Positions 1,498-19,293 of a stretch of DNA of 30,991 nucleotides are shown in pieces. The stretch is from positions 1 through 30,991 of the IMG/VR virus record IMGVR_UViG_3300023181_000069; one strand, 5' to 3'. Made by a program: the position numbers and the translations under genes. The DNA is from a virus. Numbering within the stretch: the stretch's first letter is position 1; every line of letters starts with the position of its first letter. The notes below the pieces were generated by a model, which was given only the letters and a program-made list of their open reading frames with translations, did no database searches and had not been told where the DNA came from.

Positions 1498-1516
1498 TTT
1501 ACTTTATGTTTTGTTT

Positions 1517-1610
1517 AAAGTTGCCCCTCATAAAAGTATGGTGAGCATTGTGTCTCTGGTACCAACCTGTATTCCGATCATCACCGATCTATTTATGAGG
1601 GGACAACTTT
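1517..1610 (-). repeat. Inverted-repeat module M1
   Basis: The outer arms are AAAGTTGCCCCTCATAAA and TTTATGAGGGGACAACTTT, complementary apart from one bulge. An inner stem GGTGA/TCACC follows, then about 36 nt. The right arm touches the stop codon of the HNH gene (1610). The left arm leads into the A/T leader of the next gene. It belongs to the CCCTCATAAA family described in the findings. Confidence 0.75.
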
Positions 1611-2266
1611 TAATTAAATGGATTAAATTCTTCTAAAGGTTTTCTATTTACAAATTGTTTAACTACTAAATAGATCTGTTTCATTTCCTCTGGTTTAGTA
1701 CATTTAAATCTTAATTGATTACCAGATGTTAAACGCTCATATATGGCTTGAAGTTCAATTACTTTAAAGTCATCTTTAAGACCATTTATTTCACCTAAAC
1801 AACTAACACAATTACCTTCAACATAACCTTTATCGTTATCAACTCTATCAATAGAGATTTCACTTAAAGATTTATATTTAACACCTGTGTAATAGCACTC
1901 TTTTTGTTCTAACAAAATAGAAAACGTTTCAAAACTAATATTAAATTCAATGCCTCTTTTTTTCGCATCGAAGATTTTCTTTTTGTAACGTTTAACAATT
2001 TCGGTTTCAGTAAAGAATATTTTATCAAATGTAAAGCAGTCAGCTATATCAGTAATTACAGGAGATTTTGCTACTTCTACAATTGTCACAGCTAGTTGTT
2101 TTTGTTTGAGGTCCCACTCTGTACAGAATTTAACATAAGCCTTTTTGGCATTTGCTAATTTCTTCTCAGTTTTAGGACCACCTTTTTTATTTTTAATAAT
2201 AGCAGTCATAGAGGTAACTTTACATTTTAATAAAGCTTTTTCTTTTTTAAATTGTTCTTCTGTCAT
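1610..2266 (-). CDS. HNH-type endonuclease, 218 aa
   Basis: The C-terminal half matches phage HNH nucleases. It has CYYTG at residues 124-128, ISIDRVDNDKGYVEGNCVSC at 137-156 (the D-R/N core) and a following IN..KDD segment. The N-terminal 120 residues are Lys-rich and helical and may bind DNA. Such proteins are usually free-standing homing endonucleases that nick DNA of related phages; no intron is evident here. The start is the ATG after an A/T leader. The module at 1517-1610 abuts the stop. Confidence 0.75.
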   Translation of the reverse strand: MTEEQFKKEKALLKCKVTSMTAIIKNKKGGPKTEKKLANAKKAYVKFCTEWDLKQKQLAVTIVEVAKSPVITDIADCFTFDKIFFTETEIVKRYKKKIFDAKKRGIEFNISFETFSILLEQKECYYTGVKYKSLSEISIDRVDNDKGYVEGNCVSCLGEINGLKDDFKVIELQAIYERLTSGNQLRFKCTKPEEMKQIYLVVKQFVNRKPLEEFNPFN

Positions 2267-4589: not shown

Positions 4590-4663
4590 CGCCAACCCAG
4601 GATTCGAACCGTGATTTACTCGGATTAGCGCCCAAGTACATTACGTTCATATGTTAATCGGCG
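4590..4663 (-). tRNA. tRNA-like gene with 8-nt anticodon loop (Ser-GCU-like?)
   Basis: On the minus strand the acceptor CGCCGAT pairs with GTTGGCG. Positions 8-9 are TA, the D-stem is ACAT/ATGT, and the anticodon stem is CTTGG/CCGAG. The T-region is GGTTCGAATCC, but the T-stem has mismatches. The anticodon loop is GCGCTAAT: 8 nt, with C rather than U before a possible GCU anticodon. The D-loop lacks GG. No CCA is encoded. It may be degenerate or deliberately altered. Confidence 0.55.
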
Positions 4664-5112
4664 TTATTATTCGTTTACAGACAAGGTCGGACTTTAACCG
4701 ATTTTTAAACTAGTATACGAATTACACGTATTTACCTTCTTCTGTATCATTCTATTATTATTTTCTATATATTTTATGTTTGAATTCAGGCTATTCTCCT
4801 GACTACTTACTTAAAGTGTTACACTATACTTGACTTTTTCAGTTTCTCTATGTTATTATGTTAATGACTTCTTTTCTGAGTGAGTCACGAGGCTTTTGTC
4901 CCTCCATTTCCTTGCTAGTGAGGCAGGCAACATTACATATGAACTATTGAGTCTAGACTAATTTTAAATTGTTAAACCATTATATAATAGGGCACTAATT
5001 AATTAAATACATTGCTATCAGAATTGAAAGCCCAGTTCGCATACATTGGTAATTACTCCAACAATTACAGTGAATGCTCTATACACTTAAGTATACTAGT
5101 ATTTAATATTTT

Positions 5113-5205: not shown

Positions 5206-5221
5206 TGTTTTTAAGAAGATT

Positions 5222-5295
5222 ACTTTATGTAGGATTTGAAGAGCCCGTCTGGCCTCTGGTTAGGCCAACGCTGTGTAACTGATCTATCATAAAGC
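5222..5295 (-). tRNA. Degenerate tRNA-like element
   Basis: The 74-nt element is closed by GCTTTAT/ATAAAGT on the minus strand. It has a middle hairpin TGGCC/GGCCA around an 8-nt loop and a T-loop-like TTCAAATCC at about the right distance. The D- and T-stems do not pair well. It is probably a decayed or non-translating tRNA relative. Confidence 0.35.
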
Positions 5296-5320
5296 AATCT
5301 AATCGTGTATTTCTACACTA

Positions 5321-5401
5321 AGAACCCTCATAAAGGTATGGTGGTTTCAGCTGTCCAGACCGCGTACTCCTGCTTCTATCACCGAGCTATTAAGAGGGTC
5401 T
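5321..5401 (-). repeat. Inverted-repeat module M2
   Basis: AGAACCCTCATAA pairs with TTAAGAGGGTCT apart from a bulge and a mismatch. An inner GGTG/CACC stem is shared with M1. The right arm lies 5 nt from the stop codon of the upstream gene (5407). It is part of the CCCTCATAAA module family. Confidence 0.65.
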
Positions 5402-5406
5402 ATATT

Positions 5407-5613
5407 TTAAAGCCACTTTTGATAAAAATATTTACCTTCTTCTATATTGTCCAAAAATATTGAACAAGACTTCATTGGTGCAAAACCTGTTAATATCCAA
5501 ATAATTAATGTAAGAGGAAATAATATACAAAGAATTATACCAAACACACATACCAAAATGATATGTAGTGCTAAAAGTAGCCACGCAAGTGATTGTAATA
5601 ATCTATTTTTCAT
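5407..5613 (-). CDS. Hydrophobic membrane protein, 68 aa
   Basis: From the ATG at 5613 the protein starts MKNRLLQSLAWLLLALH. It has one very long hydrophobic stretch (about residues 6-43), probably two helices forming a hairpin, and ends YFYQKWL. An upstream ATG in the same frame at 5646 would add 11 polar residues and overlap the previous gene more; the 11-nt overlap start is preferred. It resembles the preceding gene in layout, perhaps an old duplication. Confidence 0.7.
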   Translation of the reverse strand: MKNRLLQSLAWLLLALHIILVCVFGIILCILFPLTLIIWILTGFAPMKSCSIFLDNIEEGKYFYQKWL

Positions 5614-7663: not shown

Positions 7664-7682
7664 TTTGTTTTCGTTTTAGTTT

Positions 7683-7765
7683 AACAGATGCTCTCATAAA
7701 GAGTAAGAGATTAACCCGCACTGGGTAGCATTTTGTTCACCCTACTTTTACGAGGGGCATCTGTT
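7683..7765 (-). repeat. Inverted-repeat module M3
   Basis: Outer arms AACAGATGC/GCATCTGTT pair perfectly, followed by TCTCATAAA against TTTACGAGG. The outer bases differ from other modules but keep pairing. Inside, ACCC can pair with either of two flanking GGGT segments, so two exclusive hairpins are possible. Confidence 0.7.
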
Positions 7766-7785
7766 GTTAATAATTTTATTTAATG

Positions 7786-9999: not shown

Positions 10000-10022
10000 A
10001 ATTTTGTTATTTAGTTTTAATT

Positions 10023-10127
10023 AGAAGTTTACCCTCATAAAAGATAAGGGAGAATATGTCATTGCATAGCGTAACAGTTGATCCGGATCATAGGATTCCA
10101 CCTGAATCTTTAAGAGGGCAAACTTCT
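10023..10127 (-). repeat. Inverted-repeat module M4
   Basis: AGAAGTTTACCCTCATAAAA pairs with the right arm ATCTTTAAGAGGGCAAACTTCT region with two mismatches. Inside lies the palindrome TGATCCGGATCA. The right arm overlaps the stop codon and last codons of the 52-aa gene upstream. Confidence 0.7.
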
Positions 10128-10268
10128 AATTAATGTTTTAATTTCATTGTGAATTTCAATAGTAAATATACAATACGCAACAGGAATGATATTTAATTGT
10201 TTACACATATTACAATATCCACCATAATACTGTTGAGTTACTTGTTTGGCTTCTGATTTCCAAGTCAT
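10110..10268 (-). CDS. 52-aa protein ending inside module arm
   Basis: Direct translation gives MTWKSEAKQVTQQYYGGYC, then NMCKQLNIIPVAYC and a C-terminus IRSLPS. The last residues and TAA are encoded by the right arm of module M4. C-x2-C and a further Cys could bind metal, but this is weak. It starts 2 nt after the stop of the frameshifted gene upstream. Confidence 0.6.
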   Translation of the reverse strand: MTWKSEAKQVTQQYYGGYCNMCKQLNIIPVAYCIFTIEIHNEIKTLIRSLPS

Positions 10269-14508: not shown

Positions 14509-14522
14509 AATGCTTTTAATTT

Positions 14523-14668
14523 AAAGTTGGCCCTTATAAAGAATGGGGTGGTTCGCCCATTAAATTCACTGAAAGTTAATGATCATAATAACTTCATCAA
14601 TCTACATACGGATTGAGATTGCTTTTTCATGTTCATCCAATACCGCCCATTCTTTATGAGGGTTAACT
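14523..14668 (-). repeat. Inverted-repeat module M5
   Basis: CCCTTATAAAGAATGGG pairs with CCCATTCTTTATGAGGG, extended by AGTT/AACT outside. The interior is about 100 nt and AT-rich. It is the longest module of this family without a tRNA. Confidence 0.7.
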
Positions 14669-14911
14669 GTTTCAATTTCTTATTGAAAACCCCAACTACG
14701 CACACCTCCTTAAGGGTACGAATAATGCTGTCCTAATAGAAGTTAGAGGTCTAAGGAGGTTACACTGACGTATATTTGTACTCCAACTGCGTCCTAGCAG
14801 ACAAACGGATTTTCCAATCCTGCTCGACCCATATAGTTGTCAAACTATTTCTCTATCATAGAGGGCACTACTAGCCAATTAACTATAAAGGCTCGTGTTT
14901 TTAATCTATTT
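14669..14911 (-). other. 243-nt hairpin-rich gap
   Basis: There is no ORF. It contains TTTCAAT/ATTGAAA (14670-14688), a module CCTCCTTA/TAAGGAGG (14705-14759), and CAACT/AGTTG enclosing GGATT-TTCC-AATCC (14806-14820). On the minus strand the last hairpin resembles a tRNA-Cys anticodon arm (GGATTGGAAAATCC), but no full tRNA is present. Confidence 0.4.
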
Positions 14912-15949: not shown

Positions 15950-16103
15950 GCTCTCATAAAGATCGGAGGAATGATTGGATTCGAACCAATGACCTACTCT
16001 GCGGATTTACGGTACCATACTTTCATCCGAATCGAACGGAATACTACCCTGTGAGCTGTTCTACCTGACTGAACTACATTCTTGTCCATATCTTTATGAG
16101 GGC
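15950..16103 (-). repeat. Inverted-repeat module M6 enclosing a tRNA
   Basis: GCTCTCATAAAGAT (15950-15963) pairs with ATCTTTATGAGGGC (16090-16103), 13 of 14 positions, and directly continues the acceptor stem of the tRNA inside. It shows that a family module can carry a tRNA as cargo. Confidence 0.75.
15966..16083 (-). tRNA. tRNA with about 44 extra nt in the anticodon region
   Basis: Minus strand: the acceptor AAGAATG pairs with CATTCCT (one mismatch). TA is at 8-9, the D-arm is a perfect GTTC-AGTCAGGTA-GAAC, and the T-arm is a perfect ATTGG-TTCGAAT-CCAAT. The variable loop is AGGTC. Between GCTC and GAGT, where a stem closing 7 nt is expected, there are over 50 nt, including a second T-arm-like hairpin CCG-TTCGATT-CGG. 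The anticodon cannot be assigned. An intron or an inserted domain is possible. Confidence 0.7.
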
Positions 16104-16876: not shown

Positions 16877-17000
16877 CCTCTTGAGAAGGACTTGAACCTT
16901 CAGTTTTCCCGGTCGTGACGCTGATCGCGGAGCAGTTCTAATTTTACACTTACTCTATTACTCACTTACCAAGTGTGTTTACCATTTCCACCATCAAGAG
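16877..17000 (-). tRNA. tRNA with Leu-type D-arm and about 40-48 extra nt
   Basis: Minus strand: the acceptor CTCTTGA pairs perfectly with TCAAGAG. The D-arm is GTGGAAATGGTAAACAC (Leu type), and the T-arm is a perfect GAAGG-TTCAAGT-CCTTC. The total of 124 nt exceeds a Leu tRNA (about 85) by some 40 nt. The excess lies between the D-arm and the variable region; an early piece can fold as CACTT-GGT-AAGTG. No standard anticodon loop is visible. Confidence 0.65.
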
Positions 17001-18937: not shown

Positions 18938-18954
18938 AATGTTTTAGTTAAAAT

Positions 18955-19055
18955 ATTGCCCTCATAAAGAATAAGGTGAAGTTATTACTGCCAGTTCTCC
19001 AAAATTTCAGATGGACATTAATGAAATTCTTACCTTATCTTTTTATGAGGGACAG
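18955..19055 (-). repeat. Inverted-repeat module M7
   Basis: TTGCCCTCATAAAGAATAAG pairs with CTTATCTTTTTATGAGGG plus GACA. An inner GGTGA/TTACC partly pairs. The right arm ends 2 nt from the stop codon of the gene at 19057. Confidence 0.7.
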
Positions 19056-19056
19056 T

Positions 19057-19293
19057 TCATAATTGATTTTCAATAGTTATACCAGTAGAACTTAATTCAA
19101 AACTCTTCATTGCGCCAACTCTCAGAATAACGATACAAAGGATACCAAAAAAAAAATAATCTGTATATGACTCAAGAATTACACCTTTGAATCTATCAGT
19201 TAAATTGTGTTCTCCTACAGGACTAGTAACTAATATTTTACAGTAATCATTTTGAACTAAATTTCCTTGTTTGAATTTACCTTGAAATTCCAT
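19057..19293 (-). CDS. Small protein, 78 aa, probably twice frameshifted
   Basis: The N-terminal part (GKFKQGNLVQ, then DRFKGVILESYTDY) fits the SH3-like small-protein family of 12845-13069. After a T10 run the expected ending (YRYSESWRNEEF) is found in another frame, and after a TTTT run the original frame resumes as ELSSTGITIENQ. Two compensating homopolymer indels would explain the odd hydrophobic stretch FFFGILCIVILRV, which otherwise looks like a helix. Confidence 0.55.
   Translation of the reverse strand: MEFQGKFKQGNLVQNDYCKILVTSPVGEHNLTDRFKGVILESYTDYFFFGILCIVILRVGAMKSFELSSTGITIENQL

What the first reader, a model, noticed from the sequence alone, without database searches (positions are those of the whole stretch)
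15950..16103. Module arms wrap a tRNA whose anticodon region holds about 44 extra nucleotides
The acceptor, D-arm and T-arm are canonical, but over 50 nt lie between the anticodon half-stems GCTC and GAGT. This includes a second T-arm-like hairpin (CCG-TTCGATT-CGG). It is much too short for a group I intron. The module arms extend the acceptor stem by 13 bp. It could be a new small tRNA intron, a tRNA fused with part of another, or a tRNA-shaped RNA with a non-decoding role.
Basis: partly seen in the sequence, partly recalled or inferred. Interest (0 to 1): 0.8.

Follow-up and report, generated by a model that had tools for sequence, protein, structure and literature searches.

The report
Phage tRNA mimic without an anticodon
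This virus of bacteria carries a gene for an RNA shaped like a transfer RNA whose code-reading loop is replaced by a conserved 50-letter folded domain; unrelated viruses, including the classic phage T5, carry the same RNA, so it is an overlooked RNA family of unknown function and not an intron or an error.

Summary
On the minus strand (16083-15966) a complete tRNA cloverleaf has 53 nt between its anticodon half-stems instead of 9. The insert is neither an artefact nor, on present evidence, an intron. A covariance model built from other phages without this window finds it at 68 bits (E 1.7e-18). The same domain occurs in T5, where it is annotated 'rna2' and, in phage 5, 'tRNA-like RNA with unknown functions'. 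It also occurs in hundreds of T5-like phages, in T4-like Acinetobacter phages, and in several diverse metagenomic phages, with one convincing copy per genome searched. The tRNA bodies differ between phages while the domain is conserved: an anticodon stem, a GGGY/RUCC helix with compensatory changes, a genuine T-arm, an AUGGU...CGUAA element, and GCA. No splice placement gives a normal anticodon loop across the family. Neighbouring tRNA genes nearly always encode CCA; this RNA usually does not. I conclude it is a non-decoding, tRNA-shaped RNA whose anticodon loop became a structured domain, possibly a second tRNA elbow. It probably acts in trans on conserved host tRNA machinery, but its target is unknown. 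Rfam has no model for it. The 'module arms' around it are local to this phage.

The parts
15966..16083 (-). tRNA-like RNA gene: acceptor AAGAAUG/CAUUCCU, D-arm GUUC/GAAC, anticodon stem, variable loop AGGUC, T-arm AUUGG-UUCGAAU-CCAAU
   Evidence: Rfam RF00005 40.9 bits; arms parsed (acceptor 6 of 7 bp, T stem 5 of 5)
16053..16056 (-). anticodon stem 5' strand GCUC
   Evidence: pairs with GAGU 15999-15996; this stem covaries throughout the family
15996..15999 (-). anticodon stem 3' strand GAGU
16000..16052 (-). 53-nt conserved domain in place of the anticodon loop
   Evidence: model without the window: 68.2 bits, E 1.7e-18; family alignment
16046..16049 (-). GGGU, 5' strand of internal helix GGGY/RUCC
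   Evidence: U-A to C-G compensatory change in T5-type and AB1I1L sequences
16003..16006 (-). AUCC, 3' strand of internal helix
16026..16040 (-). second T-arm: UCCG-UUCGAUU-CGGA with the G53-C61 pair and UUCRAUU loop
   Evidence: three of four pairs show two-sided changes; last pair G-C in all 18
16019..16025 (-). variable linker UGAAAGU (a few nt to more than 40 nt in other members)
   Evidence: L047 has an extra hairpin here
16014..16018 (-). AUGGU, nearly invariant, D-loop-like; may form a short AUG/CGU hairpin
16007..16011 (-). CGUAA, nearly invariant
16000..16002 (-). GCA abutting the anticodon stem (AUA in Acj9/AB1I1L, ACA in L055)
16090..16100 (-). 5' module arm CUCAUAAAGAU, outside the tRNA body; local to this phage
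15953..15963 (-). 3' module arm AUCUUUAUGAG

Best explanation
The feature is a member of the phage T5 'RNA2' family. It is a stable, non-decoding RNA with a tRNA body (acceptor, D- and T-arms) whose anticodon loop is permanently replaced by a conserved domain of about 50 nt. That domain continues the anticodon stem into a second short helix and carries a second T-arm plus a GG-bearing D-loop-like element, in an order that would fit a second tRNA elbow. It is made from a single gene per phage, usually inside the tRNA array, and probably processed like a tRNA. Most likely it acts in trans as a tRNA mimic: the body is handled as a tRNA while the folded anticodon domain, which cannot decode and offers no normal anticodon loop to cut, engages or blocks a conserved host component that deals with tRNAs. 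Shown by computation: family, structure, conservation, lack of a usable anticodon. Inferred: that the domain is retained in the mature RNA, the second-elbow contact, and the bait or inhibitor role.
For: Detection by a model without the window: 68.2 bits. Homologous domain in T5 rna2 and, by blastn, in 431 phage records. Also in T4-like Acinetobacter 133 and Acj9, Providencia and Proteus phages, and metagenomic phages. Covariation: 99.3% of cells paired, score 0.58 against 0.13 in shuffles, no shuffle reaching it, slid versions at most 0.12; without the window 0.58. Anticodon stems highly variable yet paired. One convincing copy in each of 18 records. No splice placement gives U33 plus R37 across the family. 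Neighbouring tRNAs encode CCA in about 97% of cases, RNA2 usually not. GenBank AJ604531 note: 'tRNA-like RNA with unknown functions'. The T5 rna2 annotation spans the whole 125-nt cloverleaf with insert.
Against: No RNA data here: retention of the domain and processed ends are inferred. The D-loop/T-loop contact inside the domain rests on nearly invariant nucleotides, so it has no covariation support. Yersinia phage phiR2-01, L055 and L047 deviate in places. No target is identified: no complementarity to E. coli rRNA beyond chance. The three records related to the window's phage carry no hit, though the 80%-identical one is a fragment.
Confidence: 0.55

Rival explanations
1. The 53 nt are a new small intron in the anticodon loop of a decoding tRNA, removed by a protein or by self-splicing.
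For: Position is the usual one for tRNA introns; tRNA body intact. If the intron ended just before the last 6-7 loop nucleotides, U33 would be restored and the anticodon would be CCG (Arg) in 19 of 21 and CCA (Trp) in 2.
Against: That product would have a pyrimidine at position 37 in all members, and the 3' 'exon' nucleotides RUCC covary with GGGY inside the insert. Acceptor stems and discriminator bases vary with no shared identity. T5 rna2 is annotated as the full 125 nt. No group I, BHB or other known intron core is recognisable, and Rfam finds none.
Confidence: 0.07
2. It is a bait or inhibitor specifically for host anti-phage tRNases (anticodon nucleases such as PrrC or PARIS AriB, or retron effectors): the body is bound but the loop cannot be cut.
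For: Found in tRNA-rich phages. In T5-like phages the tRNA-rich region counters retron-Eco7, by tRNA-Tyr (PMC11555353).
Against: Known tRNases of this kind read the anticodon loop of particular tRNAs, yet here the loop is absent and the body is not conserved. PMC11555353 found tRNA-Tyr and ORF75, not RNA2, as determinants against retrons Eco2 and Eco7.
Confidence: 0.2
3. It is an RNA that docks on the ribosome, RNase P or another universal machine to redirect it, with the second elbow as the contact.
For: The domain, not the body, is conserved among phages of Enterobacteria, Acinetobacter and probably Bacteroidota hosts, so a target common to all bacteria is needed. The tRNA elbow is the part that RNase P and T-boxes clamp (abstract of PMC4919913, and own knowledge).
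Against: Beyond the anticodon stem the domain would probably clash in the ribosomal A and P sites. No rRNA complementarity beyond chance.
Confidence: 0.25
4. It is a decaying tRNA pseudogene or a chance insertion or assembly error.
For: One A-C mismatch in the acceptor; not called by ARAGORN.
Against: Domain conserved in hundreds of phages with compensatory changes.
Confidence: 0.02

Closest known systems
Phage T5 / BF23 / Salmonella phage 5 RNA2 (AY692264 32962-33086; AJ604530; AJ604531)
   Same: Same architecture and same domain: T5 rna2 scores 86 bits with the family model R1; 76% identity to the window over 63 nt
   Different: Different tRNA body; a CG pair instead of UA in the internal helix; no flanking module arms; Gammaproteobacterial phage
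tRNA (Rfam RF00005)
   Same: Acceptor, D-, anticodon- and T-stems; positions 1-71 all matched
   Different: No anticodon, 53-nt structured loop, usually no encoded CCA although neighbouring tRNAs encode it
tmRNA
   Same: tRNA-like body with the anticodon arm replaced; GAGG...CUCGUAA..CCGCA resembles E. coli tmRNA pseudoknot 1 (from memory)
   Different: No tag reading frame, about 120 nt instead of more than 300 nt; ARAGORN's tmRNA search found none in the window and Rfam none in it; the resemblance does not hold through the family
Intron-bearing tRNAs (group I; archaeal or eukaryotic BHB introns)
   Same: Extra sequence in the anticodon loop
   Different: Too short for group I; splice placement test failed; the domain pairs with the would-be exon
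Circularly permuted tRNA genes (PMC3978253)
   Same: Within the insert the T-arm precedes the D-loop-like element
   Different: No acceptor halves in the insert; it is nested in an intact tRNA body

Membership tests
T5 RNA2 family | Conserved anticodon domain (GGGY, T-arm, AUGGU, CGUAA, RUCC, GCA) | tested here: met
   68.2 bits with a model lacking the window
T5 RNA2 family | tRNA body around the domain | tested here: met
T5 RNA2 family | Located among tRNA genes | tested here: inconclusive
   True in most members; in the window only degenerate tRNA-like genes lie nearby
T5 RNA2 family | Stable full-length RNA in infection | not testable with these tools
   Known only as annotation for T5
Decoding tRNA | 7-nt anticodon loop with U33, directly or after splicing | tested here: not met
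   after splicing, U33 is restored only together with a pyrimidine at 37
Decoding tRNA | Aminoacylation | not testable with these tools
   No conserved identity elements seen in the acceptor
tRNA intron | Joined exons give a functional anticodon loop | tested here: not met
   No placement gives U33 and R37 across the family
tmRNA | Tag reading frame and tmRNA covariance match | tested here: not met
   the AUG-containing frame is not conserved between members
Any Rfam family other than tRNA | Match at the gathering score | tested here: not met
   T5-type RNA2 (phage 5) has no Rfam match at all at E up to 1

The most novel reading that the evidence does not exclude
A widespread, unmodelled class of phage RNAs with two tRNA elbows: a tRNA body whose anticodon arm ends in a second, circularly permuted D-loop/T-loop elbow. 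It works as a non-decoding tRNA mimic that disables or redirects a conserved bacterial tRNA-handling machine during infection.
Probability: 0.3. Interest if true: 0.9.

Novelty: new variant of a known kind. Interest (0 to 1): 0.75.

Why it matters
T5-group 'RNA2' seems to have been left as a line of annotation ('tRNA-like RNA with unknown functions'). The same domain in Acinetobacter, Proteus, crAss-related and other metagenomic phages, with compensatory changes and one copy per genome, makes it a real and widely used phage RNA that tRNA finders miss or cannot type. T5 is a laboratory phage, so function is directly testable. If it mimics tRNA to block a host factor, it would be a new RNA-based counter-defence or take-over tool and a handle on what conserved machine it binds.

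Tried and rejected
1) Another register giving a normal tRNA: ARAGORN finds none. 2) Antisense to rRNA: the longest perfect complementarity is 7 nt, as in shuffled controls; one 7-mer falls in the sarcin-ricin loop but is not conserved in the family. 3) A hidden small reading frame from the AUG of AUGGU: the frame is broken in the window and differs between members. 4) tmRNA PK1 resemblance (CGAG...CUCG): not maintained in L009, L023, L035 or the window. 5) Small ribozyme or riboswitch: no Rfam hit to the locus other than tRNA. 6) Copies in host genomes: none in 5,426 E. coli genomes; of six pattern hits in other bacterial genomes, none has the domain. 7) Mobile element with conserved arms: other phages lack the arms; each record has a single convincing copy. 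8) A search of Bacteroidota genomes with the model could not be centred and was not run. 9) Relatives of the window's own phage: the closest (80% TerL) is a 35-kb fragment and shows no hit, so it says nothing. Paper searches for the T5 RNA2 gave no functional study.

Full report
OBSERVATION. The window is a 30,991-base IMG/VR virus record. Its terminase large subunit matches PHROG 6681, and its best relatives are unannotated human faecal phages at about 40% identity, then crAss-like phages. On the minus strand at 16083-15966 Rfam's tRNA model matches over its full length at 40.9 bits, with 53 nt between the anticodon half-stems GCUC and GAGU. ARAGORN does not call this gene. The flanking arms are an 11-bp perfect stem, then one mismatch and 2 further pairs.

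FAMILY. A sensitive DNA search of phage records with the locus hit the T5 group, matching the insert and the T-arm but not the 5' body. In T5 the hit is an annotated misc_RNA, 'rna2', 125 nt, which is a cloverleaf with the same insert. blastn with T5 rna2 finds 431 phage records. Counted by organism name, that is 261 Salmonella and 112 Escherichia records against 271 and 128 for the T5 terminase; Klebsiella T5-like phages mostly give no match (4 against 81). Pattern scans of IMG/VR found the domain in unrelated records: T4-like Acinetobacter phage 133 and Acj9, Providencia phages, and several metagenomic phages from 22 kb (fragment) to 311 kb. A search of 18 whole records found one convincing copy in each.

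ASCERTAINMENT. Some scans contained the T-loop in the pattern. The scan did not: it anchored on AUGGU, CGUAARUCCGCA and the T-loop of the body. All members it added carry UUCRAUU in the insert. GGGY was in no pattern.

STRUCTURE. In an alignment of 18 members the hairpin has three of four pairs with two-sided changes and an invariant last G-C pair. The GGGY/RUCC helix shows U-A to C-G exchange in T5-type sequences and again in AB1I1L versus Acj9. Cells paired 99.3%; covariation score 0.58 against 0.13 in shuffles and at most 0.12 in slid versions. Without the window the values hold. The anticodon stem has 4-5 standard pairs in all 21 sequences although its sequence differs widely. Acceptor stems of 5-7 pairs and T-arms of 4-5 pairs are present in all, but acceptor sequence and discriminator vary. 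A model built from 17 other sequences finds the window at 68.2 bits, E 1.7e-18.

NOT A DECODING tRNA. For every way of joining n loop nucleotides of the 5' side with 7-n of the 3' side, no choice gives U33 and a purine at 37 in more than 5 of 21 members. The only placement restoring U33 in all yields anticodon CCG in 19 of 21, CCA in 2, and a pyrimidine at 37. It would also cut through a helix that covaries. Neighbouring tRNAs in the same loci encode CCA in about 97% of cases, whereas most RNA2 bodies do not; the two Providencia copies may. These points argue for a non-decoding RNA, with the domain kept. Retention itself is inferred; T5's annotation of a 125-nt RNA agrees but I saw no RNA data.

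SECOND ELBOW (inference). The hairpin has the tRNA T-arm signature: last pair G-C and loop U U C R A U U. It is preceded by 4-6 nt after GGGY, like a variable loop, and followed, after a linker of very variable length, by AUGGU, which looks like a D-loop with G18 G19. Read this way the domain is a circularly permuted tRNA core: anticodon stem 3' strand, variable loop, T-arm, linker in place of the acceptor, D-loop, anticodon stem 5' strand. L047 has an extra hairpin where the acceptor would be and L055 an extra stretch where a variable arm would be. Because AUGGU and the T-loop are nearly invariant there is no covariation to prove the contact.

MECHANISM. One copy per genome, conservation of the domain rather than the body, and hosts as far apart as Enterobacteria and probably Bacteroidota speak for a trans-acting RNA with a target common to bacteria. 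T5's tRNA-rich region is known to counter tRNA-cleaving defence through tRNA-Tyr (PMC11555353); in the passages I read RNA2 is not mentioned, and a search of its text for 'tRNA-like' found nothing. My most likely reading is a tRNA mimic that engages or blocks a host tRNA-handling component. The choice between a defence nuclease and a housekeeping machine is open.

MODULE ARMS. CCCTCATAAA/TTTATGAGGG arms enclose at least six other intergenic stretches in this window. Other RNA2 members have no such arms, so the arms are a separate feature of this phage.

NOVELTY. RNA2 is named in three T5-group records, so the kind is known by name; I found no paper on its function in the library searched (most subscription papers are not held, including the old T5 tRNA literature) and no Rfam family. 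New here, as far as I could check: its presence in distant phage groups, its covariation-supported structure, the argument against an intron, and the second-elbow proposal.

Noticed in passing
window 1513-1613, 5313-5410, 7679-7768, 10020-10130, 14519-14674, 18947-19063 (all -): Intergenic stretches closed by conserved arms CCCTCATAAA...TTTATGAGGG with unrelated interiors; folds from -22 to -41 kcal/mol. A repeated RNA module of unknown role.
   Followed up: partly
window 16878-17000 (-): Second tRNA-like RNA, Leu-like D- and T-arms and 7-bp acceptor, with an enlarged anticodon loop and/or variable region (123 nt). No DNA relatives in phage records. T5 RNA1 is also a Leu-like tRNA with an anticodon-loop insert.
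   Followed up: partly
window 4598-4680 and 5220-5293 (-): Further degenerate tRNA-like stretches with acceptor-like ends and T-arm-like sequence, read by eye.
   Followed up: no
L065 (MT835539 4868-7890), - strand: A related faecal phage carries several tRNA-like genes with anticodon loops of about 18-20 nt, so enlarged anticodon loops may be common in this phage group.
   Followed up: no
window 4675-4747 (-): Sub-threshold match to the AdoCbl-II cobalamin riboswitch (30.7 bits, gathering 36.5) in a non-coding stretch.
   Followed up: no
L004 (T5), L061 (Salmonella phage 5): RNA1, RNA3, RNAI, RNAIII, RNAIV and RNA2H are annotated there as tRNA-like or stable RNAs of unknown function.
   Followed up: no
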